This document shows positions 897 through 20,537 of a stretch of 21,413 nucleotides of DNA, piece by piece (within the stretch, counting starts at the first letter, position 1; the number at the start of each line of letters is the position of its first letter). Below the pieces are notes generated by a model. That model had not been told where the DNA came from, did not search any database, and worked only from the letters and a program-made list of their open reading frames with translations. The DNA comes from a virus. The stretch is taken from positions 1 through 21,413 of the IMG/VR virus record IMGVR_UViG_3300017613_001770; one strand, written 5' to 3'. The position numbers and the translations under genes are program-made.

Positions 897-921
897 AGTC
901 TGTTCAATAATTGAACAATCT
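897..921. repeat. Intercistronic dyad, copy 1
   Basis: A 25-bp element with perfect core GTTCAAT-A-ATTGAAC at 902-916 on the + strand. On the coding (minus) strand it begins AGATT, overlapping the TAG stop of the 155-aa gene by two bases, and ends AGACT. It is followed by GGAGG and the start of the scaffold-like gene at 880. Four further copies occur at 4163, 7723, 15245 and 20513. Confidence 0.9.
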
Positions 922-1387
922 ATACATTTGCTGCACGATCAACTTCTCTCCAATACCCATCTGTTCCAGCACCATCCCCTCCTATGTTAACAAGTGTGAT
1001 AACATCATCTTGTGCAGGACTATAATCCCCTAACGCAGGAGCCTCGTTTAGATGGAATGTGCCGTTTGCCTTAGTGTTACTGTCAGTAAGGTCAATGTTA
1101 GTATCTTGGAACACAAGCCTCTTTGTCTGTCCTTGTATCCCACCTAGAAAGGCAGTCAGTGCACAGGCACCGCCAGTGTTTGAGATAGCTACTGTTTCAA
1201 GCCCTTCATTACTTAGCTCAGTCCCAATAGTCAATGTCGTAGCACCTGCTATATCAAGGGATTGAGCACCAACTGCACCGGTTCCAGATAGACTTATAGT
1301 ATTCATCTCAGCCCTATCGGCTCTTATATACCCAGGTAGTTCACTGACAAGAACACTATCTTCAGGTTTAGTCGCGTCTATCGTCAT
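920..1387 (-). CDS. Small phage structural-type protein (155 aa), unknown function
   Basis: Starts at ATG 1387 with GGAGGA about 10 nt upstream, overlapping the end of the preceding gene by 20 bp. Its stop lies at the edge of dyad copy 1. The sequence has no signal peptide, membrane segment or catalytic motif. It is beta-rich, with Thr/Ser/Gly-rich strands in the first half (around LSGTGAVGAQ, ATTLTIGTELS) and a second half with VFQDTNIDLTDSNTKANGTF and a terminal GDGAGTDGYWREV. This composition and its place after the portal resemble small head-decoration or fibre proteins of environmental phages. I recognise the general style rather than a named family, so the function is left open. Confidence 0.75.
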   Translation of the reverse strand: MTIDATKPEDSVLVSELPGYIRADRAEMNTISLSGTGAVGAQSLDIAGATTLTIGTELSNEGLETVAISNTGGACALTAFLGGIQGQTKRLVFQDTNIDLTDSNTKANGTFHLNEAPALGDYSPAQDDVITLVNIGGDGAGTDGYWREVDRAANV

Positions 1388-1673
1388 TTTCTTGATCCTC
1401 CAGTATTTGTATAAGAATGTCAGGGATACTTAGAAAATAATTAACAGCTTTTCTTCTACCCTTTATATCCCCTAAGTGGATTAACGTTTCAGATGAATTA
1501 GGTATTAGCTTAAACCCTTCATCATCGATATGAGGTTCACCGACTAAGTCGTATTCAACTTGTGCACTTTTAGATAGTTTATTTATCTCATCAATCATGT
1601 CCTTCCAGATGAAAGACTTTTTGAATTCTTCTAACTGAACCTTAGTTGCACGAACTGTTATTTCATCTTGCAT
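1368..1673 (-). CDS. Small portal-adjacent phage protein (101 aa), unknown function
   Basis: Starts at ATG 1673, sharing one base with the portal stop (TAATG), so it is probably translated by coupling from the portal. The product is charged and helical. The N-terminal part (VQLEEFKKSFIWKDMIDEIN) looks like an amphipathic helix, and the C-terminal part contains HLGDIKGRRKAVNYFLSIP followed by an acidic tail (LEDQENDD). No catalytic residues, signal peptide or membrane segment are visible. Small helical proteins of this kind directly after the portal are common in uncultured-phage genomes without an assigned role; an assembly or connector-associated role is an inference from position only. Confidence 0.75.
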   Translation of the reverse strand: MQDEITVRATKVQLEEFKKSFIWKDMIDEINKLSKSAQVEYDLVGEPHIDDEGFKLIPNSSETLIHLGDIKGRRKAVNYFLSIPDILIQILEDQENDDRRD

Positions 1674-3625
1674 TACACTTCTCCCATCGGGACTAAGTTC
1701 CCAGCCTGCGCTTCCCTCTCGACTGTCTCATCAGGCATCGTCTGTCCTTGTACTCTATTCACATTCCTACGAAAGTCTTCCACATTCTTCGCACCAAGCT
1801 GTCCTGCTATGTACATGAAGATCCTTGATACATCGAATTCTTGTCTTAACACTTCATCAGTCGAGATAACCTTAAACATCTCCATCCAAGCTTCTGAGAA
1901 GTTACCTCCAGGAATAGAACCATCCCTTACGATCAAGTCGTAGTTGACTGCAAGGTCATAGGGGGACACGGAAGTCCTCTGTGCATTAGGCCCGAACATC
2001 TTTCTTAATTGATCTCTGTTTCTTCCGACTATTGATACGAAGGTGTCTTGTGACAAGTATTGTTGCGTATGAACTGCAAACATAGATCCTATATCCTGCA
2101 TGAACTGCATACCTATGATCATAGCAATTCGTTGAAGTCGAGAAATTGCAGATCCCCGTGTGCCTTGGAACTCGCCTTTCGTTAACCTCTCAGGACCGCC
2201 CGTGCGAAGTGCGCCCTGCATAGATTGATCCGCCCCACTTATCCGATCCATCCACTGGGTTATGTAGCTTGAATCACCTATGTTATTCCTCGTTATATCA
2301 TTCACTTGCAACTGCTGCACTACCTTATCAACTCCACGTCCCCAAGCAGGTCGACGAAGTCTGATCAACTTACCTGGTTCTGGATTCTTCAAGTCATTTA
2401 TATTTACAAGATAAGGATCAACTATAAGCATATCGTTAATAGCCTTCCTTACATTACTTATGTGCGAATTGAAGAGGAAGTCAAGAGTCTTCTGTAGGCC
2501 TGATAAGACTTCCATCCGCCCAATAGGTGTAATTGAGTATCCATCAAACTCAGGTGAGGCAACTGCTGTAGGATACATCCCATGGTTGTGGTCTGCCTTC
2601 TCACACTGCGTGATTACATCATCTGCGGATAGGGCAAAGAACCACTTCTCTGGATATTCACTTGTTCCTAACTCCCAGTCTTTTGGGATCAAGTTAATAT
2701 ACATCTTAATCGTATCAACTCGGTTTGTCGAAGAAGACAAGTTCTGCTTAGCATCACTTGCTCCACCGAATTTAATTTTACGTTCTGATTGATCAATTGA
2801 GAGGGAAGATTTCTTATTATGTCTTGCATGTAAGTACTTAACATTAAACATTCCAGAGTCTTCTTGAGCTTCGGCTGAAAGAAGATTCATTAGGTTATCA
2901 CGTTCTATCCATCCATTGAACTCACCACTTTGAATGTCACTGGAGGCCACAGATGGATCTGGCAACCACATATAAGGGTCTATGTTGCTTAAGCTATTCC
3001 CTTCAAACAACAAAGATTCGACAAACTGCACTTGTGATTCAGTCTGCATACCTAACTCGGACCTTGTAGTTACTTGTGATTTAATCGCCTTCTTACCATA
3101 AAACCTTTTCCATCCAGGAACTCCAATACCCACTCCATAACACAAGGCGTCACGTAAAACTGTATGGATGAACAGAGGGACTTTAGTCTTAATGCAATGA
3201 ACTTTAATCACCAACTCCATTAACATCGCGCCTATTGTATCATCATCTTCAACCCCTTCATACTGGAATATAGGGTCTTGGAAAAAGGCCATTGAGAGAT
3301 AAGTTAACAGCGCTTCAAGCATTGAGTATGAATATGGGAAGACTATCGAAACAGGCTTTGCTGTGTCCTTCTGCTCAAGCTGCTTTTCCTTATCTTTTAA
3401 AGGAATATAAACAGTCATTTTCTTATCTATCTCATTCCACCCTGAGAACCTTTTCTGGATCTCATTCCTTGATGCTCGAGCACGGCTCCAGATTTTATTA
3501 CGCAAGTTTTTGTGGAAGTCAGAGTCAGGTTTCAGATCAAGCCTATTTGGATATTTATAGTTATAATCCTTCTCTGAATAATCTACCTTCTGACTGTCCG
3601 ATTCACCTGTTACAATGTAAGGCAT
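1673..3625 (-). CDS. Portal protein
   Basis: A 650-residue protein starting at ATG 3625 with AGGAGA 6 nt upstream; the upstream gene's TAG overlaps the ribosome-binding region. The length and layout fit a large portal: basic N-terminal helices (residues 38-70), a mixed core with the helix PLFIHTVLRDALCYGVG (about 150-166), a beta-rich wing region with IDPYMWLPDP (215-224), and a C-terminal helical part carrying GALRTGGPERLTKGEF (471-486), followed by a long helix and an acidic end. The Gly/Arg-rich motif before a long helix is typical of portals of uncultured podovirus- or siphovirus-like phages. A portal forms the dodecameric ring at the capsid vertex through which TerL pumps DNA. Here TerL is encoded twelve kilobases away, which is unusual. 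Confidence 0.8.
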   Translation of the reverse strand: MPYIVTGESDSQKVDYSEKDYNYKYPNRLDLKPDSDFHKNLRNKIWSRARASRNEIQKRFSGWNEIDKKMTVYIPLKDKEKQLEQKDTAKPVSIVFPYSYSMLEALLTYLSMAFFQDPIFQYEGVEDDDTIGAMLMELVIKVHCIKTKVPLFIHTVLRDALCYGVGIGVPGWKRFYGKKAIKSQVTTRSELGMQTESQVQFVESLLFEGNSLSNIDPYMWLPDPSVASSDIQSGEFNGWIERDNLMNLLSAEAQEDSGMFNVKYLHARHNKKSSLSIDQSERKIKFGGASDAKQNLSSSTNRVDTIKMYINLIPKDWELGTSEYPEKWFFALSADDVITQCEKADHNHGMYPTAVASPEFDGYSITPIGRMEVLSGLQKTLDFLFNSHISNVRKAINDMLIVDPYLVNINDLKNPEPGKLIRLRRPAWGRGVDKVVQQLQVNDITRNNIGDSSYITQWMDRISGADQSMQGALRTGGPERLTKGEFQGTRGSAISRLQRIAMIIGMQFMQDIGSMFAVHTQQYLSQDTFVSIVGRNRDQLRKMFGPNAQRTSVSPYDLAVNYDLIVRDGSIPGGNFSEAWMEMFKVISTDEVLRQEFDVSRIFMYIAGQLGAKNVEDFRRNVNRVQGQTMPDETVEREAQAGNLVPMGEV

Positions 3626-3634
3626 TTAAATCTC

Positions 3635-4156
3635 CTATACCAAAAGTCCATAGATGTCCATAGTGACAGTACAAGCTACTGTTGTACCAGTATTTACATA
3701 GACACCAAATACAGAAGCCGCAGCTTCTTCTGAATACTTAGTTACATCAGCACCTCTTACAATCATAAAATCAGTGTTAGGAGTAGTCATAGATGAAAAA
3801 TCAATAGTCTGTCTCCATGTAGTACAAAGTGCTCCAGAACCAAAATCGTAGTCAGTCCCACCAGCCATTGAGGCTGATGGATCTCTAACAACAACAGCTG
3901 TAGGATAAAAAGTCTTACCTGCAGGAACTGTGTAAAGATTAGTCTTAGCTGCAGCTGTCTGCATATCAATACCAGTGACAGTTGCAACTTTAGTTGCAGT
4001 TATTCCTGGAGAATCGTCTAATCTAATTACATCCTCTGGATCAACTGGGGTTCCGGCCTTTATTGGAGCTGAAGTTTCAACAGCAGAATCATAGTCTACA
4101 TCATCATACTGTATGATATCCTCTGCGCTACCTATTCTTATTGTTTGAAGTACCAT
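3635..4156 (-). CDS. Phage structural-type protein (173 aa), unknown function
   Basis: Starts at ATG 4156, only 11 nt after the core of dyad copy 2 (4163-4187). The ribosome-binding site is weak (GGA about 9-11 nt upstream), unlike the GGAGG seen after the other four copies. The N-terminal third (IRIGSAEDIIQYDDVDYDSA) is acidic. The rest is beta-rich: LYTVPAGKTFYPTAVVVRDPS near the middle, and a C-terminal VYVNTGTTVACTVTMDIYG. That second half reads like a jelly-roll or Ig-like virion decoration domain. There is no signal peptide. A head- or tail-decoration role before the portal is plausible but unproven. Confidence 0.75.
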   Translation of the reverse strand: MVLQTIRIGSAEDIIQYDDVDYDSAVETSAPIKAGTPVDPEDVIRLDDSPGITATKVATVTGIDMQTAAAKTNLYTVPAGKTFYPTAVVVRDPSASMAGGTDYDFGSGALCTTWRQTIDFSSMTTPNTDFMIVRGADVTKYSEEAAASVFGVYVNTGTTVACTVTMDIYGLLV

Positions 4157-4162
4157 TGGTTT

Positions 4163-4187
4163 AGTCCGTTCAATTATTGAACAATCT
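4163..4187. repeat. Intercistronic dyad, copy 2
   Basis: Perfect core GTTCAAT-T-ATTGAAC at 4168-4182. The TAA stop of the 1041-aa gene (4174-4176) lies inside the core, so that protein's last residues KIVQ are read from the element. Flanks match the other copies (AGATT before, GGACT after, on the minus strand). This copy has the shortest gap to the next ATG and no strong Shine-Dalgarno sequence. Confidence 0.9.
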
Positions 4188-7100
4188 TGTTTGATAAATC
4201 TTCTATTGATATACCAAGTACATTAGTACCTTGGTTTGGTTCATAACATACTGGAACATATTCAGAACTTCCACCGGTGTCTGTAAAGCCGCCGGTAAAT
4301 CTTAAACATCGTATATCACAGTCTGATCCTGTTACTTCTCCAGTCCCTATTATAAGACTATACTTACCATACCCACTCATAGTAACATTATCGGCTGAAA
4401 TGACTACATCGTCCGTAAATCCCCCTGGCATAACCCAGAAGGTGTCACCATCAAGGTCATACGCTAAATCATGGAATCCCGTTGAGCCATTAGACCAGAG
4501 AGGTACATCACCGTTTGTGCCAATGGTGAATGTTCCTGGAACAGCCAGAACCGTAGTGTTTGTAATGGCTCCGGCATCTGGCAGGGTTAGGGTTACGGCT
4601 ACATCGTCGTCTGTCACCATAGTGCAACCAGACGGCAAAGTGATACTCTCATCTTTCCAAACAAGGTCTGTTGTTCTCATGCCAGCGGTTAGGGTTAGCA
4701 CATATGTTTGAGTACTATCAGTTCTGCCAGTGTAATAAGCTATACCATCTGTAACCCCACTTTCAACTGTTCCGTATGGTGTCCCATTTTCAACCGTGAA
4801 CCGTGAGCTTGTAGTTAATGTAATCGTAACCGTTTGCCCGACCGTATCATACGTTGTTGCTGGAGCTGTAGAATTTGTAAAGGTTCCAACACCTGCCTCA
4901 CTTGCAACCCTTGCCTCATCCATTTCCGCAACAGTCAGCGTCCTGTCATAACCCACAAAGTAATCCACGAGAACATCAGCCAAACCAGTTGTAATGGCCC
5001 AAGCACCAACATACAAATTTCCGGTTTTGGTGTGTCCGGTCATAGTGTTGGAAGAATCCGTAGTATAATTATCCCCTAACTGAGCGCTTGCATCATCGCT
5101 GTAAATATAGATTAAATTAGATTTGTCGCTAACATGATGCGCCCAACAGACCCAGTACCATTTGTCTGCTTCCAAGTTGTTCCCCGTTGATATTGTTTCC
5201 CAAGTGTCACTATCTACACCATAACCGATTCCCGCTGTTACCTCACCAGTTGTTTGTAGAACCCGAATAAAATAAGCCGCTTCATCATCTACTTCGTAAC
5301 CTTTCACAAGGACAGGTGAGCCAGTTGTTAAATCAGTTGGTCTTATCCAAGCACATATAGTAAATTCCCCATTTGTGCCTATACCAAAATCGTCTGTCGT
5401 ACCGTCCCTTGATAACCAATCCCCTGGGTCAGTGTCTTCTAATACTGCACTGGTCGGTCCCTGCATCCGTGTCTCTGAAGTTGTAGCGTTGTTATTAGTC
5501 CAAAAGGTATCGTTATCGCTAATTTCATCTCTAAGCCAATTTACTGTGGTATCAAATTTACATAGTATTGTCATGTTTGGAGGGTTGTCACCCTCTTCTT
5601 GGTACACAAAAGCCCCTAATTCCCATCCGCTGCCATAATCTGACTGTAATAACGTCGCAACAGCACTGGGCCAAACACTCGTAATATCAAGGCCCGTCTG
5701 GTAATCATTGCCAAGGGTCTGCCCAGCGTCAACAGTGCCACCCCCTTCAGTCCCCCAAAAATCACCACCAGCCACATCACTAAGATCCGGGTTATCAAAC
5801 ACAGCGTTTGCATGACCAGCGGTGATCCATGCAGCCTGTTGGGCCTCGGTATAAGTCGTGGCACCCCACTCAATTATATTTTGATCTCCACCTGTCGCAT
5901 TGTAATAGATGTTAGCATTAACGGTCGTATTTCCATATACTCTATCTAAAATTAAATCACCCGAATCTGTCTGATAAAAAACATTATTTCGGAAGGTAGA
6001 ATTTGAATAGTCTAAATACAAGATGCGCGACATTCCAGCCCGATTTACAAATGTGTTATTATAAATAACATTCCCTGTGCCATTATTATTTTCTCTAAAT
6101 GAAGCTGCTGTGCAATCAACAATTACATTACTGAAAATAGCTGTGTTATTAACAGCATTATTTGCTCCGGCACCACCTGTCACATAAATGCCGTAATTGC
6201 AATTTTCAATCCAATTAAGATATATATTATGGCCAGTTGACTCATCAGGAACGCCGTAAGCCCCTGTGAATAACAAATTTATACCATAGGAAGCATTGTT
6301 ATATATATAATTCTCATATATAGAAATATTTTCAGATTTTGCATTACCAAGCCCAGAACCCTCCTTAGTAGTTAATACTTGAACCAATGGATAAGTGCTA
6401 CCGCCAACACCACCCTTACCAGTGAAATCCCCATCTCGATAGAAGCTATTGTTATAAATAGATATATTATGACACGATTTCAAATCAATAGCATTCTCGC
6501 CACAGTTATACCACGTATTATCATATATAGTAAATTGGTCAACACCAGCAACTTGAGGTATCTGAATTTTACGAGCCTGAAAAGCATCTGCATTAATATC
6601 ATTAATTGTAGTGTCATGAATAGTTACGGTTCCAGAATCCTTGTAAGTAAGATATATAGCATAGACATCCTTACCGCCATCTGTAGGAATTGTTTCAGGG
6701 CCAAGGTTTTGTATTGTGCAATCTTTAATTTCGATATCACCTGAGCCATACCATATGGTAAAACCGTCGCTGCCATATCCTGTGTAATCTTCACCGCCAT
6801 CTCCATTGACATCAACACTGTCAATAGTGATATTACTCACATAAGAGAGCTTCATCATAGCGTATCTTGCTGCGTTTAACTGTTGTCCTTCAAACTGTAT
6901 ATCTTTGATCGTGAGCGTGGTTATAGCATCTCCATCCGCTCCGCTATCAACAGAAATTCCATGAACATTACCTAAGGCATCAACATCAATCTTAGGTTTT
7001 CCGTTACCTACTATTGTCTTACCATCCCCATCAAGACCTTGAATCGTAAGTGTTTTACCAGTACCCGTAATGTAGGTTGACGAGAGGTTTATCCTTTCGC

Positions 7101-7299
7101 TAAATGTATCCCCCGGCCTAAGATTAATTGTGTCACCACTGGCAAGATTAGTTTGATTTAATGACCATATTTTATTATATGCAGTAGCCCAACTGAGGCC
7201 ATCAGAATCGTCACCTCCGGCGCTGAAATAATAAGTCGTTCCCCATGCCGGAGCGCACAGGACGAAGATTAGTAGGATTGTTATAACTATGTTTTTCAT
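4174..7299 (-). CDS. Exported right-handed beta-helix protein with LamG-like domain (1041 aa)
   Basis: Starts at ATG 7299 with AAGGA 7 nt upstream; the preceding gene's stop overlaps that site. Residues 1-20 are a Sec signal peptide (Lys/Asn start, hydrophobic core, CAPAWG cleavage region). Residues about 22-565 form a parallel beta-helix, opening with YYFSAGGDDSDGLSWATAY and LASGDTINLRPGDTF, then many Asn-rich rungs such as NISIYNNSFYRDG and ENISIYENYIYNN. This is the pattern of polysaccharide lyases and of NosD/PbH1 proteins. Residues about 575-800 look like a LamG/concanavalin-type domain (FTICAWIRP, ADKWYWVCWAHH, NLYVGAW, VDYFVGYDRTLT). The last 240 residues are beta-rich with further Cys. 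A carbohydrate-binding or depolymerising surface protein or spike is likely. No lyase catalytic set could be fixed by eye. The C-terminal KIVQ is encoded by dyad copy 2. Confidence 0.8.
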   Translation of the reverse strand: MKNIVITILLIFVLCAPAWGTTYYFSAGGDDSDGLSWATAYNKIWSLNQTNLASGDTINLRPGDTFSERINLSSTYITGTGKTLTIQGLDGDGKTIVGNGKPKIDVDALGNVHGISVDSGADGDAITTLTIKDIQFEGQQLNAARYAMMKLSYVSNITIDSVDVNGDGGEDYTGYGSDGFTIWYGSGDIEIKDCTIQNLGPETIPTDGGKDVYAIYLTYKDSGTVTIHDTTINDINADAFQARKIQIPQVAGVDQFTIYDNTWYNCGENAIDLKSCHNISIYNNSFYRDGDFTGKGGVGGSTYPLVQVLTTKEGSGLGNAKSENISIYENYIYNNASYGINLLFTGAYGVPDESTGHNIYLNWIENCNYGIYVTGGAGANNAVNNTAIFSNVIVDCTAASFRENNNGTGNVIYNNTFVNRAGMSRILYLDYSNSTFRNNVFYQTDSGDLILDRVYGNTTVNANIYYNATGGDQNIIEWGATTYTEAQQAAWITAGHANAVFDNPDLSDVAGGDFWGTEGGGTVDAGQTLGNDYQTGLDITSVWPSAVATLLQSDYGSGWELGAFVYQEEGDNPPNMTILCKFDTTVNWLRDEISDNDTFWTNNNATTSETRMQGPTSAVLEDTDPGDWLSRDGTTDDFGIGTNGEFTICAWIRPTDLTTGSPVLVKGYEVDDEAAYFIRVLQTTGEVTAGIGYGVDSDTWETISTGNNLEADKWYWVCWAHHVSDKSNLIYIYSDDASAQLGDNYTTDSSNTMTGHTKTGNLYVGAWAITTGLADVLVDYFVGYDRTLTVAEMDEARVASEAGVGTFTNSTAPATTYDTVGQTVTITLTTSSRFTVENGTPYGTVESGVTDGIAYYTGRTDSTQTYVLTLTAGMRTTDLVWKDESITLPSGCTMVTDDDVAVTLTLPDAGAITNTTVLAVPGTFTIGTNGDVPLWSNGSTGFHDLAYDLDGDTFWVMPGGFTDDVVISADNVTMSGYGKYSLIIGTGEVTGSDCDIRCLRFTGGFTDTGGSSEYVPVCYEPNQGTNVLGISIEDLSNKIVQ

Positions 7300-7308
7300 A
7301 ATTATTCC

Positions 7309-7707
7309 TTATCTATCAAACTCAGCAGTTATCTGAATTTTTGCAGGAGTACCTGCAGCTTCACTTATGAATCTAAACGATCTTATCCAATCTCCATTTA
7401 CAATTCTTATGCTGTAAGTCTCATATAATATATGTCCAAGACCTACTGTCGGTAAAGATTCCTGAACAGGATCAACTCCACCTACAGTCCATCTTATATC
7501 TGCAGTCTCACAAGTTATATAAACAGCTACTGCCCTGTTTGTTCCGGTAGTAGCTATTACATTAGCAGGGAGACTCTGGGCTTCATCTGTAGAGTAAGCA
7601 TACTGAGTTGCAGTAAACACAGATCCTTGGGTTGAGACTACTTTATCAGTAGCATAAGAAACTGATGAGAATGATAAGAGAAGTAATACTATTAGAACAC
7701 GTAACAT
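7309..7707 (-). CDS. Small exported beta-rich phage protein (132 aa)
   Basis: I place the start at ATG 7707 (MLRVLIVLLLLSFSS), with GGAGG 6 nt upstream and dyad copy 3 directly before it. The frame extends further upstream, but that would read through the dyad and the end of the previous gene. Residues 1-19 are a signal peptide with a cleavage region around SVSYA-TD. The mature part, about 113 residues, is beta-rich, with TGTNRAVAVYITCETADIRWT in the middle and a C-terminal GDWIRSFRFISEA...KIQITAEFD. This resembles small decoration or receptor-binding proteins seen beside tail-fibre genes in environmental phages, but with an export signal added. Partner and role are unknown. It sits in a two-gene block with the downstream beta-helix protein. 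Confidence 0.75.
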   Translation of the reverse strand: MLRVLIVLLLLSFSSVSYATDKVVSTQGSVFTATQYAYSTDEAQSLPANVIATTGTNRAVAVYITCETADIRWTVGGVDPVQESLPTVGLGHILYETYSIRIVNGDWIRSFRFISEAAGTPAKIQITAEFDR

Positions 7708-7722
7708 CTTTTTCCTCCAATT

Positions 7723-7747
7723 AGTTCGTTCAATTTTTGAACAATCT
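7723..7747. repeat. Intercistronic dyad, copy 3
   Basis: Core at 7728-7742 reads GTTCAA-TTT-TTGAAC, so the six-base arms are intact and only the three-base centre differs from the other copies. It lies one base after the TAA stop of the 94-aa gene and just before the GGAGG of the 132-aa gene. The variable centre fits either a hairpin loop or an operator spacer. Confidence 0.9.
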
Positions 7748-7748
7748 A

Positions 7749-8033
7749 TTAACAAATCGGAGCGTAGACCTTCAGCTCCGCCCACTTGCCGTGAAGTCTT
7801 ACATCGCCAGGAAATTCTACAAATGCTTGAAGTCTCCAGGTCCCACGTAAGTCCAGTGCGTCAGTATCTGTATTATACTCCATAGATTCTGTACTACCAG
7901 CTGGAATCACAGGAGTCCAATAGCCAGTTGACCCATCTGGTTTTTCATATTTTATTTGTATCTCAGCATGCCCTGTCAAGTCAATACCAGTGCTAAGCGT
8001 TATCTTTACACTATCACCAATAAATGTTTTCAT
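7749..8033 (-). CDS. Small Ig-like phage tail/baseplate-type protein (94 aa)
   Basis: Starts at ATG 8033 with AAGGA about 8 nt upstream. It opens with MKTFIGDSVKITLSTGIDLTG and continues with IQIKYEKPDGSTGYWTP, RGTWRLQAFVEFPGD and LHGKWAELKVY. This is a run of alternating strands typical of a single immunoglobulin-like domain, and it resembles the N-terminal domain of baseplate upper-protein-like and small tail proteins of environmental phages. It has no signal peptide, unlike most of its neighbours, so it should remain cytoplasmic until assembled. It may be a partner or adaptor for the repeat protein encoded just upstream, though this is only inferred from adjacency. The stop codon is followed one base later by dyad copy 3. 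Confidence 0.75.
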   Translation of the reverse strand: MKTFIGDSVKITLSTGIDLTGHAEIQIKYEKPDGSTGYWTPVIPAGSTESMEYNTDTDALDLRGTWRLQAFVEFPGDVRLHGKWAELKVYAPIC

Positions 8034-8048
8034 TGAGGTAGTCCTTTA

Positions 8049-10247: not shown

Positions 10248-10251
10248 TTTT

Positions 10252-10380
10252 TTACCCCTTTTGCGGACAACTTACATTGATACTTATGATATTAGGAGGA
10301 TCAATGTTTTTCGGTTTACAACTATCTATCGATGTACATGAAAATAGGATAGCCAATAAACCCACTAATATAATTTTTAT
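10252..10380 (-). CDS. Micro-lipoprotein (42 aa) lacking a normal start codon
   Basis: The frame encodes (M)KIILVGLLAILFSCTSIDSC followed by KPKNIDPPNIISINVSC-PQKG. It has a short hydrophobic core and a lipobox-like LFSC, and its stop at 10252-10254 precedes the next gene by a few bases. There is no ATG. At the expected place (10380-10378) the codon is ATA, overlapping the upstream TAA as ATAA, exactly where ATGA would give the usual 4-bp start/stop overlap. A single G-to-A change explains both. The alternatives are a GTG at 10365, which leaves only a short signal, or initiation at ATA/ATT. It may be a real tiny lysis-type or exclusion-type lipoprotein, or a gene recently silenced. The C-terminal motif IDPPN...CP is shared with the upstream gene. 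Confidence 0.45.
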   Translation of the reverse strand: MKIILVGLLAILFSCTSIDSCKPKNIDPPNIISINVSCPQKG

Positions 10381-10742: not shown

Positions 10743-10752
10743 GTTTTTCTCC

Positions 10753-12709: not shown

Positions 12710-12710
12710 A

Positions 12711-14312: not shown

Positions 14313-14324
14313 TGTCTTAACCTT

Positions 14325-14771
14325 TTATGCAAAGTTAATTTTTAAAGGATGATCATTCTCGGCTGTAGCTTTCCAGTAACGCCTTTCCATAGGCGTGCTG
14401 TCAGCAATATAAATACCCTCTGGACAGCCGAACAAATTCCCCTTATGATTCTTACTCATACCGCGCCATTTAGTCCCCCAAAGAAGCGAAATCGCCACTG
14501 GATATCTCTCTTCTCTAGGCAGGTTACCATTCTTCCAAGACAGATACCGCTTACGCCTCGTTTCAGCCTGAAACTGAAGTGCGTAGTTGTCACAGTCATT
14601 GAACTCACGTATGAAGTCCATTTCTGGAATCATTGACTTTTCAAGCAGCAGGCCAATCTGTGCCTCTGGTATTAGCCAGTATTTTTGATCCCAGAAAATT
14701 AGATCATCTGATTTTAGATAGGGCCAAATTTTAAGTATCTCCGTCCTGAGATACGCAGTATCTACTATCAT
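14325..14771 (-). CDS. DCD-motif phage protein, possible cysteine-peptidase-like fold (148 aa)
   Basis: I prefer ATG 14771 (MIVDTAYLRTEI), which has GGTGA about 6 nt upstream. An ATG at 14783 in the same frame would add four residues but lacks a ribosome-binding site. The protein has WPYLKSDDLIFWDQKYWLIP early, then FNDCDNYALQFQAETRRKR (Asp59-Cys60-Asp61), an aromatic segment AISLLWGTKWRG, SKNHKGNLF with His109, and IADSTPMERRYW with Asp124. A DCD-A motif followed by a conserved His and Asp recalls transglutaminase-like cysteine peptidases and related small phage proteins found near terminase genes. That comparison is only from motif order and spacing. It has no signal peptide. It is the first cytoplasmic-looking gene before the exported cassette. 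Confidence 0.65.
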   Translation of the reverse strand: MIVDTAYLRTEILKIWPYLKSDDLIFWDQKYWLIPEAQIGLLLEKSMIPEMDFIREFNDCDNYALQFQAETRRKRYLSWKNGNLPREERYPVAISLLWGTKWRGMSKNHKGNLFGCPEGIYIADSTPMERRYWKATAENDHPLKINFA

Positions 14772-14791
14772 TTTAGTCACCATTCATGAGT

Positions 14792-15229
14792 TTAGGTTAT
14801 AGTAAAGATTCCAGATGCATTCCACGTAATAGTTAGATCACCAGCAGTCATGTCTACTGGGCCATCAAGGTCTACAAAAGCTATTGCATCCTTTCCAGCA
14901 TCTGTGTAATTGTAGATAATTCCCCAATAGGCGTCCACATCATTGGCAGCATCCTGTGCCCAAGTCGGATTTGTAGCCGAGTCAAAGGTCATTACACCAG
15001 CTGCCTCAGATACCAACGCAGATAATGCACCAAGATCTGTACCATTATCTATGTAAGTCCCACCATCCCCAACTTGAGTAAAATCACCAATCACAGGTGT
15101 TGCCGTGCCTGCTGCTGGGGCTGCTGTGTTATCACAGATTGCACAGTAAAAATGGTCTGTGCTAGCCCAGTCACCGTCAAGCATCTTCGCTTTTGCCTCA
15201 TCAAATACTGTCACATCACCTCTTGCCAT
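14792..15229 (-). CDS. Phage structural-type protein (145 aa), unknown function
   Basis: I place the start at ATG 15229 (MARGDVTVFDEAKAKMLDGDW), with GGAGG 8 nt upstream and dyad copy 4 before it. The open frame upstream would read across the ribosome-binding site. The sequence has FYCAICDNTAAPAAGTATP, GGTYIDNGTDLGAL, WAQDAANDVDAYWGIIYNYTDAGKDAIAFVDL and GDLTITWNASGIFTIT. This beta-rich pattern, beginning MARG-VTVFDEAK and ending in TWNASGIF, is very frequent among uncultured phages next to structural genes. I recognise the family as a recurring phage structural-type protein of unknown function. It has no signal peptide or catalytic motif. Confidence 0.8.
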   Translation of the reverse strand: MARGDVTVFDEAKAKMLDGDWASTDHFYCAICDNTAAPAAGTATPVIGDFTQVGDGGTYIDNGTDLGALSALVSEAAGVMTFDSATNPTWAQDAANDVDAYWGIIYNYTDAGKDAIAFVDLDGPVDMTAGDLTITWNASGIFTIT

Positions 15230-15244
15230 CTTAATTACCTCCAA

Positions 15245-15269
15245 AGTTCGTTCAATTATTGAACAATCT
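15245..15269. repeat. Intercistronic dyad, copy 4
   Basis: Perfect core GTTCAAT-T-ATTGAAC at 15250-15264. The TAA stop of the membrane/coiled-coil gene (15256-15258) lies in the core, so its last residues KIVQ come from the element, as with copy 2. A GGAGG follows at once on the minus strand. Confidence 0.9.
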
Positions 15270-15648
15270 TATTCGTTTTAATCTCTTCAAGACTTTCAAG
15301 AATTTTTTTGTTTACTTCTTTTTGCTCCAACTTAAATTCACTTAAGTTCCCATCTATATTTTCCAACTGCATCTCAATAACCATTCGCTGAGCGTCTATT
15401 GTAGATACTCTTTCTCTATTATGCTCAACCCTATGTTCAATAGCCTCCAACTCACCTTCTCGTCTATCTCGACCATCTGAGTAGGAATCGTGGACAAGTG
15501 TTGCAATACCTACACCTGCAGCTACTATTATACCTAAAGAAATTCCAAGGTAAGACTTGGATACCTTTGTACTTAAACATCTGTTTATTGATAACCTGCA
15601 ATCTGGATCAGGACATTTAAGATGATTATTGTTATTTTCATGGCTCAT
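15256..15648 (-). CDS. Membrane-anchored coiled-coil protein (130 aa), inner-spanin-like topology
   Basis: The start is ATG 15648 (MSHENNNN), giving a 4-bp ATGA overlap with TerL and GGAGG 5 nt upstream; a longer frame from 15660 is less likely. The N-terminus is Asn/His-rich with three Cys (CPDPDC...C at residues 12, 17 and 24). One membrane helix follows (SYLGISLGIIVAAGVGIATLV, about 33-53). A charged helical part with heptad-like spacing comes next (GELEAIEHRVEHNRERVSTI, IEMQLENIDGNLSEFKLEQ, NKKILESLEEI). A short N-terminal cytoplasmic part, one membrane helix and a periplasmic coiled coil are the layout of inner-membrane spanins and of some small TerL-adjacent membrane proteins of unknown role. 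It is not next to the lysis genes, which weakens the spanin idea. The last residues KIVQ are encoded by dyad copy 4. Confidence 0.7.
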   Translation of the reverse strand: MSHENNNNHLKCPDPDCRLSINRCLSTKVSKSYLGISLGIIVAAGVGIATLVHDSYSDGRDRREGELEAIEHRVEHNRERVSTIDAQRMVIEMQLENIDGNLSEFKLEQKEVNKKILESLEEIKTNKIVQ

Positions 15649-17174
15649 GCAAACCTCCAATTTTCAAGTTCAGGCTCATAGTCAAGTTCAGCATATTCAG
15701 CTTCTATGTCTGCGGGGTCATCTTTGGGTGAAAAGTAGCGTTCGCCGAGTTCAAGCATCTCAATTATATATGCAAGGCAATCCATTAAATCCCAGAGCTT
15801 TGAGCGAGGAAACATTAGAAGCTGTTGTTCAAGCTTCTTGACTGTTGGACAAGCTGCATTGTGATAGATGTAGCCTTGTCGATAATAAGGTACAAGTTCC
15901 TTCACACGCAATTCCTTCTTCATCCCACCACGAGCCTTGAGCCAAACGAGTTCGAAGAACTTCCCACGCTTAAACATCTCGTTTTTGATAGGTTGGCGAA
16001 TGAACTCATTGAGGGAAGTTTCCTCAATCCCAAGTACTTTTGCATCTAACCTTATGCCCATTCCAAACAACTCATCATAAATCTCATCGGGGTACATCTT
16101 TTCCGAAACTGCATCACGCACGTAGATTTTTGCACTTGCAAGGTCAATCCCTACACCAATGATTGCAGTTTCCGCTGAGTGGATCTTGACAGTTTTTGCA
16201 GGATCCATTAGGACTACAGTTTCTATGTTCTTATCCTCTTGGATCTCTGCGTCTGTCTTCTTCATATCCATGTCGTTCTTTATGTTCTCAGCAGGAAGAC
16301 CGTAATAGTGGAAGTAATCCCTTTGAAATGCTGCATCCTTGGAGGAAATAGGAAGGTTTCTGAGTTCCCTGAAAAACACGTCTGTCTGACCTGAGTCACA
16401 GTGCTCCTGCCATTCCTTTTGAATGTCTTCGTCGGACATGAAGATAGGTGCTGTAGAATGGAAGTCGTCGTCGCAAGCCTCAAGGCGTACAGACTCCCAC
16501 TCGTTCGAGTCGAGGAGCTTCTGCAACGTAGCGTCTTCGTGCTTCAAGGTGTCTATGTAGACTATTTTCCAATTCCTATGAAGTCGAGGAACTGCTTTGA
16601 TTACGTCTGCGTAAAGCCACTCATACCAGGCTTTACGAATCTCATCATTCATTATCTTCTGCGGGTCTTCTAGGTCATCTATTATTATTAGGCCTGGCCG
16701 GTCATTCTTGAACAGCACACCTCGAACCTGCTGTCCTGCACCACGTGGCCAGATGAGTGTGTTATAGGCGACCCAGGCCTTCTTGGAGAAGACTTCCTCG
16801 AAATCAGTGCTGTTCTGGTCAATTTTAAAGCTACCAAAGAAGTGTTTAATCATTCTGTTGGTAACAAGCTCACGTCTAAGATTCTCAGTTTGGAGTGAAG
16901 CTGCGTCATGGGACTTGTTGATGTAACAGATAAACCCTGTGTGGCGGAACAAGATGTATCTAGCCATAAGGGCGAGCCCAACAATAGATGTTTTTCCCCA
17001 TCCACGAGGGGCGGCGATGGCCACTTTATTTGCAGGTCCATCAATGAGATCAAAGATCTTTCCATGAATCTGCTCCGCAAAAGGAACATAGAAACGTTCT
17101 GGGAAGAAGGTTTTCGCAGTCATTTCGGTGGAAACTGAACATGCTGCAAGGATTTGTTCTAATTCTTTATCCAT
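15645..17174 (-). CDS. Terminase large subunit (TerL), packaging ATPase/nuclease
   Basis: 509 residues, starting at ATG 17174, which shares one base with the upstream TAA (TAATG). The ATPase domain has Walker A APRGWGKT (residues 55-62), an adenine-region FICYINKSHDAASLQT (81-96) and Walker B LIIIDDLED (162-170, acidic pair 166/167). The nuclease domain has VLMDPAKT (Asp324), GIEET (Glu384/385) and a C-terminal DLMDCLAYI (Asp462 or 465), the acidic set expected of an RNase H-like nuclease. The length is normal for the family. TerL docks on the portal, drives DNA into the head and cuts the concatemer. Here TerL lies three to four kilobases downstream of the TerS-like gene and twelve kilobases upstream of the portal, with a spike gene directly before it. 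No frameshift or missing motif is seen. Confidence 0.95.
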   Translation of the reverse strand: MDKELEQILAACSVSTEMTAKTFFPERFYVPFAEQIHGKIFDLIDGPANKVAIAAPRGWGKTSIVGLALMARYILFRHTGFICYINKSHDAASLQTENLRRELVTNRMIKHFFGSFKIDQNSTDFEEVFSKKAWVAYNTLIWPRGAGQQVRGVLFKNDRPGLIIIDDLEDPQKIMNDEIRKAWYEWLYADVIKAVPRLHRNWKIVYIDTLKHEDATLQKLLDSNEWESVRLEACDDDFHSTAPIFMSDEDIQKEWQEHCDSGQTDVFFRELRNLPISSKDAAFQRDYFHYYGLPAENIKNDMDMKKTDAEIQEDKNIETVVLMDPAKTVKIHSAETAIIGVGIDLASAKIYVRDAVSEKMYPDEIYDELFGMGIRLDAKVLGIEETSLNEFIRQPIKNEMFKRGKFFELVWLKARGGMKKELRVKELVPYYRQGYIYHNAACPTVKKLEQQLLMFPRSKLWDLMDCLAYIIEMLELGERYFSPKDDPADIEAEYAELDYEPELENWRFA

Positions 17175-19750
17175 TAATGTACCATAGAGATCACATCTGG
17201 ATCAGCTCCAGACCTGTATAAATTCCCTGCACTTAACCCACCTGCTATTGCAGCAGCATTATTAGCATAGACAGGTATATGAGGTATGTTAATACTTGTA
17301 GCAGGATCTAGTTCTAACCAAGGAAGAGCTACCCAAGTTCCTGGTGCACCAGCTACAGTACACACCCACATTAGGATACCACTAAGAGGATTCCAATTCC
17401 AGACAATATCTCCTAATGCGTATGTCCCAGCTACTGGAGCAGCTGCAGCTGAAAAATGTCTGGATAATCCAACATATGTAGCAGCACCATAAATTAAATC
17501 ACCCCAAGGAGGAATATTCCCAGTTACATAATCATTAGTATAATCAGATATATTCCATATGACAGTAAACGCATTTAAGGGATCACGAATCTCATTGTCG
17601 ATGATAGTTACATTATCTACATATCGTACCCATAGGCCATAAGAAGTTGGAGCTGAGTCTTCGTTACCTCTTATTACTTTATTTCCTGCTATCCACAGTC
17701 CATCAATGTCTCGAGTAACTAAACCAGTTGCCTGAATACCTGAAGAGCCAGTAGTCCTGATTACATTATTAGTTATGCGAACATCATGTACGAATACATA
17801 GGCTAGTGATGTACCATCATCTAACAAAGGATCAGTCCATAGAGCCAAATAATCACCAGCCTGCTCAAGTCCAGAGACCCATATTCCAGGATTCTCATCA
17901 GTTCCGACATCAGATAGTTCATTACCATCAATGATAATGTCTACATTAGAATTACCTAGACTTATACCGGCACCGTAGGTATTACTTATTACATTTTTAG
18001 ATATAATTATATGTCTTCCATTAAATACTGATATACCTTCAGTAGTCCCTCCTGCTCCAGGATTAAGTCCAGTATTTTGGATAGTATTGCCAATAATAGT
18101 TAGACGTCCGACCATAGATGAACCTTCAGCAACTGAGTAAAATGCAGCTATTCGAATACCAGATAGTCGAGTGTCCCTTATGGTATTTCCTATTGCTGTT
18201 ACACTAATAACTCCAATTAGCCCAAGTCCACCACCTGAAGTAGTTGCCTTACCATCACCAAGGACATTGCCAGTAACAGTTCCATCTTGGACAGTTCCAT
18301 AAGTGTCATAGTCATGACTTACAAGACCTATAGCATCATCTCCAACATCTGTTACTGTGTTGTTAGAGATAGTAAAATTACTAGAGCCACGCTGAATGTG
18401 AACTCCATCAGCCCAGGTATCATGGATGTAGTTATTAGAAATAGTGAAATTGTGAGAATTCATCATATGAATGCCTACACCATCAGATCCAGTTATCTCA
18501 CATCCATCTATTGTTGTATTATACCTAGCTGCAGCAACTCCATCTACTGTAATTAATCCATAAGTGCCAGTATTAGATGCTCCATTTGAGGTAATCTTTA
18601 AATCACGAACAGTTGTCCCACTTGCCTCTATTTCCAGTCTAGCATTTTCAGCTGCTCCATTAGTAGGGAAGTCTAAAGTTCCAGGTCCAGTAATTATTAA
18701 GTTAGCATCAGATATAGTGAGAATAGCTGTAGACGTATATACACCATCTGAGAAGTAAATTGTAGTACCACTTCCAGCATTTAAAGCAGCTTGAATGGCA
18801 GCCGAGTCATCTACCGCATCATCTGTTATAGCCCCAAACCAATCTGGATAAACAGTCCCTCCACCAGATGTAAATACAACTGTACCTGCACCTGTAAATA
18901 ATAGTTGAGTAGGCGTAGCTATAACATTCCCTGGTGAGTATATAGTTAAAGTATCTCCACCAGTTATAGTTACAATGCATCCTTTCAAGACCTCTAAACC
19001 TTGATACTCATCAAGAGTTACATCAAAGTCTATGGTTTCAGGTTGGTCAACGAGGATAGTTAGATCTACATCTTCATCTGCAGTAAACTCGATTACATCA
19101 TTTAGGTCTTGGAACCAACATGAACGGACTACTGAACCAGCAAGGAAGTCGAAGTCATTTGCAGCTGCACCGGAGAAGATTTGGTAAGTGCCGGCCTCGA
19201 TCTTCTTGAGATTTGTTAAGTTGAATCCGCCTGAAGTGAGGATAAGAGGAGATTCCCAACGGAGGGTTACATCGTCTCCAACAACTGCATCTGCAGTCAG
19301 AGTCTCAGCACGTGAGATTGCCATAGTTAAGGTATCATCACTTGTGACGTCTAGGGCTTCGTCCAAGTCGTCGAACCAGGCAGAGCGGACTACAGCACCA
19401 ACAGGAAAGTCAATATCCCCAGCTCCGGAGAAGATTTCCCGATCACCTGCATCAATGTCGTAGGTTTCAAGGGTGAGTTGAGTAGCAACTGCAAGGGAGC
19501 CTGCAGACATGAACTTAAGACGAACGTTGATAGGGATTGTTAAAGTTCCTACGGCCTCTTCTCCAGTGATAATAACTATGCGCTCGCTGCCTCCAATTGC
19601 AGTAATTGCTGCATCTAAGTCTGCATATGCACGAGTGTCAATCCACTTACCATCAGTGCCTGTGACGATTACTGTAGGGAAGAATTCGGCAAGTGCAACT
19701 ACTGCAACTACAAGGACTGCAAGAAGGACTGAAAAGATAATCTTTTTCAT
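17174..19750 (-). CDS. Exported right-handed beta-helix spike / pectate-lyase-like protein (858 aa)
   Basis: Starts at ATG 19750, directly after the holin-candidate stop, with GGAG 9 nt upstream. Residues 1-21 are a strongly hydrophobic signal peptide or anchor (KKIIFSVLLAVLVVAVVALA). Residues about 95-310 contain three versions of a roughly 90-residue unit with IFSGAG...F..G.VVRS.WF; the third ends YPDWFGAITDDAVDDSAAIQ, the familiar entry into a phage pectate-lyase-type beta-helix. The helix (about 310-720) shows PbH1-type rungs such as NFTISNNYIHDTWADGVHI and NVDIIIDGNELSDVG. The C-terminal 97 residues hold GTYALGDIVWNW..., WVCTVAG, and the terminal motif PVYANNAAAIAGGLSAGNLY seen at the ends of many phage tail proteins. 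It is most likely a receptor-binding or depolymerising spike. The signal peptide is unexpected for a virion spike. Confidence 0.8.
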   Translation of the reverse strand: MKKIIFSVLLAVLVVAVVALAEFFPTVIVTGTDGKWIDTRAYADLDAAITAIGGSERIVIITGEEAVGTLTIPINVRLKFMSAGSLAVATQLTLETYDIDAGDREIFSGAGDIDFPVGAVVRSAWFDDLDEALDVTSDDTLTMAISRAETLTADAVVGDDVTLRWESPLILTSGGFNLTNLKKIEAGTYQIFSGAAANDFDFLAGSVVRSCWFQDLNDVIEFTADEDVDLTILVDQPETIDFDVTLDEYQGLEVLKGCIVTITGGDTLTIYSPGNVIATPTQLLFTGAGTVVFTSGGGTVYPDWFGAITDDAVDDSAAIQAALNAGSGTTIYFSDGVYTSTAILTISDANLIITGPGTLDFPTNGAAENARLEIEASGTTVRDLKITSNGASNTGTYGLITVDGVAAARYNTTIDGCEITGSDGVGIHMMNSHNFTISNNYIHDTWADGVHIQRGSSNFTISNNTVTDVGDDAIGLVSHDYDTYGTVQDGTVTGNVLGDGKATTSGGGLGLIGVISVTAIGNTIRDTRLSGIRIAAFYSVAEGSSMVGRLTIIGNTIQNTGLNPGAGGTTEGISVFNGRHIIISKNVISNTYGAGISLGNSNVDIIIDGNELSDVGTDENPGIWVSGLEQAGDYLALWTDPLLDDGTSLAYVFVHDVRITNNVIRTTGSSGIQATGLVTRDIDGLWIAGNKVIRGNEDSAPTSYGLWVRYVDNVTIIDNEIRDPLNAFTVIWNISDYTNDYVTGNIPPWGDLIYGAATYVGLSRHFSAAAAPVAGTYALGDIVWNWNPLSGILMWVCTVAGAPGTWVALPWLELDPATSINIPHIPVYANNAAAIAGGLSAGNLYRSGADPDVISMVH

Positions 19751-19963
19751 TTAAGGAATCTCCGTTTTCTCCGCTGGAAGAGGAGACTGTTTTAGGTACA
19801 TAGCAGCTGCAACTATTGCACTTACAAGGGCTACCATTCCAAGTTTGCCAGCGCCTTCTTGCATATTAAAGCCAATAGGATCAACTATCATTACTGTAAT
19901 TGAATTAGCTGCTCCACCAATGATTGCACTTATTAGACCTTTAGTCCACTTATTCCATTTCAT
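19751..19963 (-). CDS. Holin candidate, two membrane helices (70 aa)
   Basis: Starts at ATG 19963 in a 4-bp ATGA overlap with the 53-aa gene. The N-terminus is short and basic (MKWNKWTKG). Two hydrophobic segments follow: GLISAIIGGAANSITVMIV (about 9-27) and LGMVALVSAIVAAAMYL (about 41-57), with a polar tail (KQSPLPAEKTEIP). Two membrane helices, small size, a charged N-terminus and a position in an endolysin-lipoprotein cluster fit a class II holin, which makes lethal lesions in the inner membrane at lysis. The linker between the helices contains DPIGFN, as in small membrane proteins often called holins in uncultured phages. The assignment rests on topology and neighbours only, since holins share no catalytic signature. 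Confidence 0.65.
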   Translation of the reverse strand: MKWNKWTKGLISAIIGGAANSITVMIVDPIGFNMQEGAGKLGMVALVSAIVAAAMYLKQSPLPAEKTEIP

Positions 19964-20121
19964 TTGAAGTACTCCACTGCAGATTTATCGATGAAAAGAG
20001 CTTCGATCTCCTCGACCGTAGGCTCACCTTTGTCAAAAGCATTTGAGATAGTTATTACTGCTGTAGGGCCGTAACGTAAGATGGCCTGGACGATTGCGAT
20101 AGTTAGTGCTGCATTAGCCAT
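19960..20121 (-). CDS. 53-aa helical protein between lipoprotein and holin candidate
   Basis: This small gene starts at ATG 20121, directly after the lipoprotein stop (TAAATG), with GGAGG 8 nt upstream. It ends in a TGA overlapping the holin candidate's ATG. The product begins MANAALTIAIVQAILRYGPT, continues AVITISNAFDKGEPTVEEIE and ends ALFIDKSAVEYFK. The first half is moderately hydrophobic, perhaps a surface-seeking helix rather than a true membrane span; the second is an amphipathic acidic helix. Tight translational coupling on both sides and a good ribosome-binding site argue that it is real. It may be an antiholin or another lysis accessory protein, or a leftover regulator. No family name comes to mind. 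Confidence 0.75.
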   Translation of the reverse strand: MANAALTIAIVQAILRYGPTAVITISNAFDKGEPTVEEIEALFIDKSAVEYFK

Positions 20122-20499
20122 TTACTTATCCTCCTTTTTAAGAATGAAAGGCTTCATGTACTCAATGAGCATTGAGAGTCTTGCAGAAACATTTGACATT
20201 GAGTGTAGGTATTTTTCTTTATCAGAGCTTGCTCCGGAGGTTTTGTAAGCCAAGAGGGCACTTACAGATTCGTTATGAACTTGACGATAAAGATCACCAT
20301 ACCTAACAGCTTCATTCTTTTGCGCTTCAGACATAAGACCTTGTTTGTAAAGATCTCCGGCAATTGAAAGAGTTGACTCGTAAGTTGCTTTGCTAACTGA
20401 GAGGGTATCGAATGAGTTCTTTACAAACCCAGATGCACAAGCAACTAAGGTTAACAAAAAGATTAATGACACTGAAACTTTTACTGCTTTGTAAGTCAT
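20122..20499 (-). CDS. Lysis-cluster lipoprotein, outer-spanin candidate (125 aa)
   Basis: Starts at ATG 20499 with GGAGG 6 nt upstream, and dyad copy 5 lies just before it. The signal peptide MTYKAVKVSVSLIFLLTLVAC ends in a lipobox (LVAC, Cys21), predicting an outer-membrane lipoprotein. The mature part is helical and charged (ATYESTLSIAGDLYKQGLMS, YGDLYRQVHNESVSALLAY, a basic C-terminus KPFILKKEDK). A lipoprotein directly after the endolysin and before a holin candidate fits an outer-membrane spanin component, the protein that fuses the two membranes in the last step of Gram-negative lysis. It is longer than many outer spanins. The alternative is an exclusion lipoprotein. A partner inner spanin could be the membrane coiled-coil protein encoded at 15256-15648. 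Confidence 0.65.
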   Translation of the reverse strand: MTYKAVKVSVSLIFLLTLVACASGFVKNSFDTLSVSKATYESTLSIAGDLYKQGLMSEAQKNEAVRYGDLYRQVHNESVSALLAYKTSGASSDKEKYLHSMSNVSARLSMLIEYMKPFILKKEDK

Positions 20500-20512
20500 A
20501 GTCTACCTCCTT

Positions 20513-20537
20513 AGTTTGTTCAATTATTGAACGGTCT
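20513..20537. repeat. Intercistronic dyad, copy 5
   Basis: Perfect core GTTCAAT-T-ATTGAAC at 20518-20532. The TAA stop of the M15 peptidase (20524-20526) lies in the core. This is the most diverged copy in its flank: on the minus strand AGACC in place of AGATT. It is followed by GGAGG and the lipoprotein start 18 nt after the core. Confidence 0.9.

What the first reader, a model, noticed from the sequence alone, without database searches (positions are those of the whole stretch)
897..20537. Five near-identical 25-bp dyads punctuate the operon at gene junctions
Seen: the core GTTCAA-N3-TTGAAC occurs at 902, 4168, 7728, 15250 and 20518, and I found no copy inside a gene body. On the transcribed strand each has AGAYY before and RRACT after, giving partly complementary outer arms. 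All five lie between one gene's stop and the next gene's start region, dividing 25 genes into six blocks. With 12 fixed bases and equal base use, one match is expected about 0.001 times in 21 kb. Only the three central bases and wobble-compatible flank bases vary, as expected of an RNA hairpin or a protein-binding dyad. Possible roles: mRNA processing or stabilising hairpin, a stoperator-like repressor site, a phage RNA polymerase promoter, or a gene-shuffling boundary. A standard sigma70 promoter is unlikely given the distance of only 11-21 nt to the ATG.
Basis: partly seen in the sequence, partly recalled or inferred. Interest (0 to 1): 0.85.

Follow-up and report, generated by a model that had tools for sequence, protein, structure and literature searches.

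The report
Evenly spaced phage ParB-methyltransferase loading sites
The five repeats are copies of a 25-base protein-docking site that recurs at even intervals across the genomes of a whole family of phages, and its sequence changes in step with a phage protein that joins a DNA-clamp (ParB) to a DNA-methylating enzyme, which gives those poorly understood fusion proteins a likely, testable target.

Summary
Confirmed: five GTTCAA-N3-TTGAAC dyads (shuffled expectation 0.002). The conserved unit is a symmetric 25-bp site, AGWYYGTTYAA-N3-TTRAACRRWCT, without conserved flanks. Near-complete relatives carry 10-24 copies, so it is family-wide. It is not an RNA hairpin: C-A mispairs are common and complementary pairing is not enriched within genomes. 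It is not a promoter: about a quarter of the copies lie inside genes, others at convergent junctions. In all 24 genomes tested, sites are more evenly spaced than random. Related phages use different versions of the site. These track the first residues of the recognition helix in a phage ParB-DNA methyltransferase fusion: Q149 goes with A, R/H149 with G at site position 7. That is the code measured for ParB R173 and Noc Q158 (PMC7383237). CTP-binding and catalytic motifs are intact in essentially all 81 proteins. Best reading: parS-like loading sites for a ParB clamp that carries a methyltransferase, spaced so that sliding clamps can cover the genome. Recognition by ParB is strongly supported. 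Sliding and methylation are inferred. The window is a late-gene fragment, so its own ParB gene was not seen.

The parts
897..921 (.). 25-bp dyad, site 1: AGTCTGTTCAATAATTGAACAATCT (+ strand)
   Evidence: 21 nt upstream of the start of ORF 2-880(-)
4163..4187 (.). 25-bp dyad, site 2: AGTCCGTTCAATTATTGAACAATCT; its centre is the stop codon of ORF 4174-7299(-)
7723..7747 (.). 25-bp dyad, site 3: AGTTCGTTCAATTTTTGAACAATCT, directly after the stop of ORF 7749-8033(-)
15245..15269 (.). 25-bp dyad, site 4: AGTTCGTTCAATTATTGAACAATCT; its centre is the stop codon of ORF 15256-15660(-)
20513..20537 (.). 25-bp dyad, site 5: AGTTTGTTCAATTATTGAACGGTCT; its centre is the stop codon of ORF 20524-21039(-)
15645..17174 (-). 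terminase large subunit, used to find the relatives
   Evidence: phrog_38 E 2.6e-58; 59 related loci
1673..3625 (-). portal protein (SU10-type podovirus portal)
   Evidence: PF23899 E 6.9e-14

Best explanation
The dyads are parS-like loading sites for a phage-encoded fusion of a ParB-type CTPase clamp (N-terminal ParB fold plus helix-turn-helix) to a beta-class N6/N4 DNA methyltransferase. Two subunits each read one 11-bp half-site with the helix-turn-helix. Binding there lets the N-domains close a CTP clamp that slides off the site along the phage DNA and carries the methyltransferase with it. Because sites recur every 2-9 kb, mostly tucked into gene junctions where they cost no coding sequence, sliding clamps can cover the whole genome and methylate phage DNA rather than host DNA, probably as protection from restriction or nucleases. 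Supported computationally: sites, symmetry, even spacing, and co-variation with the ParB recognition helix. Inferred: physical binding, CTP clamp closure, sliding, methylation and the protective role. Rough confidence: about 0.9 that this protein reads the sites, about 0.55 for the sliding-methylation step.
For: Near-complete relatives carry 10-24 copies in their own versions; de novo scores are 116-528 against at most 52 in shuffles. The motif is a sharp-edged symmetric 25-mer with no flanking signal. Spacing CV is 0.35-0.68 against about 0.9 for random placement in all 24 genomes (combined p 8e-25 uniform, 2e-29 junction null), and 17 of 20 giant genes contain internal copies. Out of 399 ParB and 76 RHH-protein columns, ParB 149 ranks first for site position 7 and ParB 148 first for position 9. 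The model places them at the start of the recognition helix (149-164). Q149 goes with A7 (four of four deduplicated; L185 also) and R/H149 with G7; 7 of 8 non-T7 versions match, none of 48 others carries Q/R/H, and 5 of 5 independent tree pairs go the same way. Residue 149 corresponds by the GKS-R motif to Caulobacter ParB R173 / Noc Q158, shown to read G versus A (PMC7383237). Sequence and fold searches hit Noc, ParB and KorB at the N-terminus and CcrM / M1.HpyAVI at the C-terminus. CTP motifs GxRR (79/79) and ENxxR, and DPPY (80/81), are intact. A cultured Microcystis phage with a distant ParB-methyltransferase has six dyads 7.2-9.6 kb apart (spacing p 0.0004).
Against: The window is a 21-kb late-gene fragment, so its own ParB-methyltransferase was not seen. 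The nearest ParB-bearing contig (G012) shares the all-GTTCAA version, but its link to this phage is not proven. No binding, CTPase or methylation data exist for this subfamily, and none of the phage N6N4-methyltransferase fusions in PMC12704722 is named among the CTP binders in the passages read. Column ranking is not corrected for ancestry: an RHH-protein column (36) has the highest z for site positions 5 and 6 (with about half the information of ParB 149), and positions 1-4 correlate with columns scattered over both proteins. The residue classes in the tree test were chosen after seeing the table, and its sign test has only five pairs (p 0.06). Even spacing could also serve compaction or regulation. 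Site positions are partly conserved between genomes (272 shared junctions against 127 expected), which could reflect gene-specific roles.
Confidence: 0.72

Rival explanations
1. Same ParB-methyltransferase reader, but the sites act as long-range transcription control (KorB-like): clamps slide from a dyad to nearby promoters and silence or time the operons.
For: Most sites lie 14-28 nt upstream of a start codon in codirectional junctions. RK2 KorB, a ParB-family CTPase clamp, slides up to 1.5 kb to silence promoters (PMC11790492). Positions are partly conserved between genomes.
Against: About a quarter of the copies are inside genes and 27 of 393 at convergent junctions. Spacing is even regardless of operon structure. 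No conserved promoter element flanks the dyads. The methyltransferase would have no role, yet its catalytic motifs are kept.
Confidence: 0.13
2. Same reader, but the function is structural: ParB clamps coat, bridge or condense phage DNA, or shield it, with methylation secondary.
For: Even spacing around the genome. Canonical ParB-CTP can bridge and condense DNA (as cited in PMC11790492).
Against: [quoted passage not shown] No ParA partner was found in G001's early genes. The methyltransferase motifs are intact.
Confidence: 0.07
3. The dyads are operators or stoperators of another phage DNA-binding protein, such as the conserved 84-aa ribbon-helix-helix-like protein encoded next to the ParB-methyltransferase.
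For: The gene is next to ParB-methyltransferase and was found in 78 of 81 loci. Dispersed junction sites resemble L5 stoperators. One of its columns (36) tops the z ranking for site positions 5 and 6.
Against: Its predicted DNA-facing strand (PRFSFEI) stays nearly constant while the site changes. For positions 7 and 9 the leading columns are ParB 149 and 148. No repressor or integrase was found in G001's early region, and the genome-collection scan returned only six hits, four of them on 45-48 kb contigs of phage-genome size.
Confidence: 0.05
4. Phage or host RNA-polymerase promoters (T7-like, N4-type hairpin promoter, or sigma-dependent).
For: 6-bp stem with 3-nt loop and position just upstream of gene starts resemble N4 hairpin promoters or T7-like late promoters.
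Against: Symmetric with no conserved directional flank, copies inside genes and at convergent junctions, no RNA polymerase found in searches (the search had no positive control), no excess of sigma-70-like sites.
Confidence: 0.02
5. mRNA hairpins for processing or stability.
For: The five window copies have a perfect 6-bp core stem.
Against: In relatives C-A mispairs are about as common as U-G pairs at position 9/17 (17 vs 24) and commoner than C-G at 5/21 (57 vs 50). Within-genome complementarity is at or below chance. No Rfam match.
Confidence: 0.01

Closest known systems
Noc and its dispersed NBS sites (Bacillus subtilis)
   Same: ParB-family CTPase with N-terminal fold and HTH; short palindromic sites scattered over a chromosome; same recognition-helix position sets site specificity (Q reads A).
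   Different: Noc sites are 16 bp on a bacterial chromosome and Noc tethers DNA to the membrane; here the sites are 25 bp, on a phage, and the clamp carries a methyltransferase.
KorB and its OB operators (plasmid RK2)
   Same: ParB-family CTPase clamp using operators on a mobile element and sliding from them.
   Different: KorB works with KorA as a transcription repressor and has no enzyme domain; even spacing of its sites was not compared here.
Phage ParB-CTPase / N6_N4 methyltransferase fusions (PMC12704722)
   Same: Same domain combination (PF02195 + PF01555), noted as enriched in phages.
   Different: That survey reports no cognate DNA site or function for them in the passages read; here a site, its versions and its genome-wide layout are proposed.
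Mycobacteriophage L5-type stoperators
   Same: Many copies across a phage genome (from general knowledge, largely in short intergenic gaps).
   Different: Asymmetric sites read by a monomeric repressor in temperate phages (PMC9283540 title and abstract); here palindromic, in phages without a detected repressor or integrase.
ParABS partition systems with parS
   Same: ParB fold, HTH and palindromic site with a GTT-type half-site.
   Different: No ParA found, sites spread over the whole genome rather than clustered, and a methyltransferase in place of the usual C-terminal dimerisation domain.

Membership tests
ParB/Noc/KorB CTPase-clamp family (reader protein) | N-terminal ParB CTPase fold | tested here: met
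   PF02195 above cut-off; PDB profile hits to Noc, ParB, KorB; Foldseek hits
ParB/Noc/KorB CTPase-clamp family (reader protein) | CTP-binding boxes (GxRR, ENxxR) | tested here: met
   79 of 79 proteins with the region keep G61, R63, R64; E97 and N98 in 80 of 80
ParB/Noc/KorB CTPase-clamp family (reader protein) | HTH that reads a palindromic site, with the R/Q specificity position | tested here: met
   Helix 138-145, recognition helix 149-164; residues 148/149 co-vary with the site; R-G and Q-A match PMC7383237. Met by co-variation only; physical binding not tested
ParB/Noc/KorB CTPase-clamp family (reader protein) | CTP-dependent clamp closure and sliding from the site | not testable with these tools
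   needs biochemistry
ParABS partition system | ParA ATPase partner | tested here: not met
   No ParA-type family among all Pfam hits to 25 early proteins of G001
ParABS partition system | clustered centromere rather than dispersed sites | tested here: not met
   Sites dispersed and evenly spaced in 24 of 24 genomes
ParABS partition system | ParB C-terminal dimerisation domain | tested here: not met
   C-terminus is an N6_N4 methyltransferase
Stoperators (L5-type) | asymmetric site | tested here: not met
   Symmetric 25-bp motif
Stoperators (L5-type) | temperate phage with immunity repressor | tested here: inconclusive
   No repressor or integrase family in G001's early proteins; only six genome-collection hits, four on phage-sized contigs
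T7-like phage promoters | single-subunit RNA polymerase gene | tested here: inconclusive
   PF00940 0 of 7 genomes, but the control also rang nowhere; none in Pfam scan
T7-like or N4 hairpin promoters | directional sites upstream of transcripts | tested here: not met
   Symmetric, no directional flank, inside genes and at convergent junctions
RNA processing hairpin | compensatory pairing of the two arms | tested here: not met

The most novel reading that the evidence does not exclude
A self-marking DNA modification system: an enzyme carried on a sliding CTP clamp is loaded at evenly spaced phage-specific sites, so that methylation is restricted to, and spread over, the phage's own genome. The loading code diverges rapidly between phages, giving each its own 'address'.
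Probability: 0.5. Interest if true: 0.92.

Novelty: new variant of a known kind. Interest (0 to 1): 0.8.

Why it matters
ParB-methyltransferase fusions are common in phages but lack a known target or function. This gives them a concrete DNA site, a readable recognition code with many natural versions, and a layout (even spacing over the genome) that suggests how they work. If sliding delivery of a methyltransferase is right, it is a new way to modify one DNA molecule selectively and a candidate anti-restriction strategy. The isolate Microcystis phage Mel-JY34 offers a direct test. The natural variants are also a rich data set for how ParB-family specificity evolves.

Tried and rejected
RNA hairpin (pair tests against it). 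T7-like RNA polymerase promoter (PF00940 search empty, though its control rang nowhere, so weak). N4-type virion RNA polymerase in the giant 1.5-2.4k-aa protein (no Pfam hit; only unknown-function PHROGs). Sigma-70 promoters and terminators (no excess, none at the dyads). Rfam (none). Reversed-sequence control is invalid for palindromes and was replaced by dinucleotide shuffles. One distant temperate gut phage with a ParB-methyltransferase (PV036432) shows no clear dispersed dyad. The structure model is moderate (pLDDT 72), so only the secondary-structure boundary and fold hits are used.
Full report
OBSERVATION. Three of the five have the upstream gene's TAA stop in the centre. The window is a 21.4-kb virus record, a linear fragment, of a podovirus with an SU10-type portal and a phrog_38 terminase; all genes called here are on the minus strand.

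THE REAL UNIT. Fifty-nine related loci were found with the terminase and near-complete relatives were read in full. GTTYAA-N3-TTRAAC occurs up to 21 times per genome, with no hits for the reversed pattern in these relatives (the one reversed hit is in G020, which was brought in by the pattern alone). The full motif is 25 bp, AGWYYGTTYAA-N3-TTRAACRRWCT, with information dropping to background at once on both sides. Relatives that seemed to lack it carry it in degenerate form or another version.

NOT RNA. In sense orientation, positions 5/21 are C-A in 57 and C-G in 50 of 146 codirectional sites; positions 9/17 are T-G in 24 and C-A in 17. Shuffling right halves among sites of the same genome shows that complementary pairs are not enriched and are somewhat depleted (position 3/23: 101 against 121 expected). 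The two half-sites vary independently, as for a dimeric DNA-binding protein.

LAYOUT. In 24 genomes the sites are more even than random: CV 0.35-0.68 against roughly 0.9, Fisher p 8e-25 for uniform placement and 2e-29 when sites are drawn from gene junctions (genomes share ancestry, so these p-values are optimistic). Of 393 sites, 250 are in codirectional junctions, 97 inside genes, 27 convergent and 15 divergent. Seventeen of 20 giant genes hold internal copies. Junction use is partly conserved: over all genome pairs, both have a site at 272 shared junctions and only one has it at 469 (127 shared expected by chance). Even spacing is therefore kept despite turnover.

THE READER PROTEIN. The near-complete relatives examined encode a protein with a ParB N-domain, an HTH and an N6/N4 methyltransferase domain (in G006 the contig ends inside the gene). 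A scan with it brought 80 contigs whose dyads differ: GTTYAA, ATTAAAT, MATTAA, WATAAAT, GAATAA, GGTTRA and others. I compared each site position with every variable column of this protein and of its conserved RHH-like neighbour (399 + 76 columns). ParB 149 leads for position 7 (z 6.9, next 3.7) and ParB 148 for position 9 (z 18). For positions 5 and 6 an RHH column has the highest z, but ParB 149 carries about twice the information. Positions 1-4 follow the deep split of the tree and are not informative. Lysine at 149 goes with G6-T7, aspartate with A6-T7, glutamine with A7, arginine and histidine with G7. On a tree built without the HTH, non-T7 sites and Q/R/H149 coincide in 7 of 8 rows, with none among the other 48, and 5 of 5 independent pairs agree (p 0.06 because of the small number). 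In Caulobacter ParB, R173 in the same GKS-R motif contacts guanine 1 of parS, and Noc's Q at that place reads adenine 1 of NBS (PMC7383237). The equivalence rests on the shared motif and the modelled start of the recognition helix, not on a solved structure.

MECHANISM. CTP boxes and methyltransferase motifs are conserved essentially throughout. No ParA, integrase or repressor family was seen in the early proteins of G001. Only six loci were found in 84,980 genomes, four of them on 45-48 kb contigs, about the size of a whole phage genome. ParB, Noc and KorB load at their sites as CTP clamps and slide (PMC8429893, PMC11790492). With a methyltransferase in place of the usual C-terminal domain, dispersed loading sites at 2-9 kb would let the enzyme scan the whole phage genome. 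That step is inference, and no CTP binding has been shown for N6N4-methyltransferase fusions in the passages read of PMC12704722.

GENERALITY. The Desulfofustis phage OP947158 has nine dyads of its own version, CTATGTCCCAA-N-TTGGGACATAG, mostly 4-8 kb apart. The isolate Microcystis phage Mel-JY34, with a 23%-identical ParB-methyltransferase, has six dyads 7.2-9.6 kb apart (CV 0.11, p 0.0004; motif score 104 against at most 46 in shuffles). Weaker candidates exist in a Manatee Spring phage and a Vibrio phage.

LIMITS. The window's own ParB-methyltransferase has not been seen. The closest ParB-bearing contig, G012, uses the same all-GTTCAA version, but L030, not G012, is the contig that matches the window at 99.9%. 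Gene calls in relatives come from a simple caller, so the fraction inside genes is approximate. Nothing here is a binding or methylation measurement.

Noticed in passing
L088:9557-9808 (+) and homologues in 78 of 81 loci: An 84-aa ribbon-helix-helix-like protein of unknown family is encoded beside the ParB-methyltransferase in nearly all relatives; possibly a partner or clamp regulator.
   Followed up: partly
L088:5618-5908 (+): A 97-aa protein of unknown function (phrog_5888) is among the best-conserved early proteins of the family (62-77% identity in metagenomic relatives).
   Followed up: partly
L088:11524-14028 (+): DNA polymerase A carries an N-terminal uracil-DNA-glycosylase-type domain (PF03167).
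   Followed up: no
dyad positions 3/23 and 12/14 across 16 genomes: Perfect left-right complementarity is rarer than expected within genomes, as if fully perfect palindromes were avoided.
   Followed up: partly
L128:10342-11634 (+): The Desulfofustis phage enzyme has DFPY instead of DPPY in methyltransferase motif IV, the only exception among 81; its activity may differ.
   Followed up: no
L249 (PP438425) 1679, 9142, 16385, 25812, 35381, 44040: Six evenly spaced dyads in the isolate Microcystis phage Mel-JY34, not annotated in the record.
   Followed up: yes
L257 (MW202489) 470, 7758, 10266, 18878, 23994, 31474, 36641, 38789: GGTTTAC-N6-GTAAACC dyads, fairly evenly spaced, in a phage with a distant ParB-methyltransferase.
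   Followed up: partly
L088-L090 (G001) 15423-21374 and homologues: A giant 1,500-2,400-aa late protein of unknown function at the convergent junction of the two arms; no RNA polymerase match.
   Followed up: partly
window 4174-7299 and 17174-19750: Two large right-handed beta-helix proteins, probably tail spikes.
   Followed up: no
ends of G001, G003, G005, G007, G010, G019: Terminal overlaps of about 114-225 bp, consistent with complete or circularly permuted genomes or assembly overlaps.
   Followed up: no
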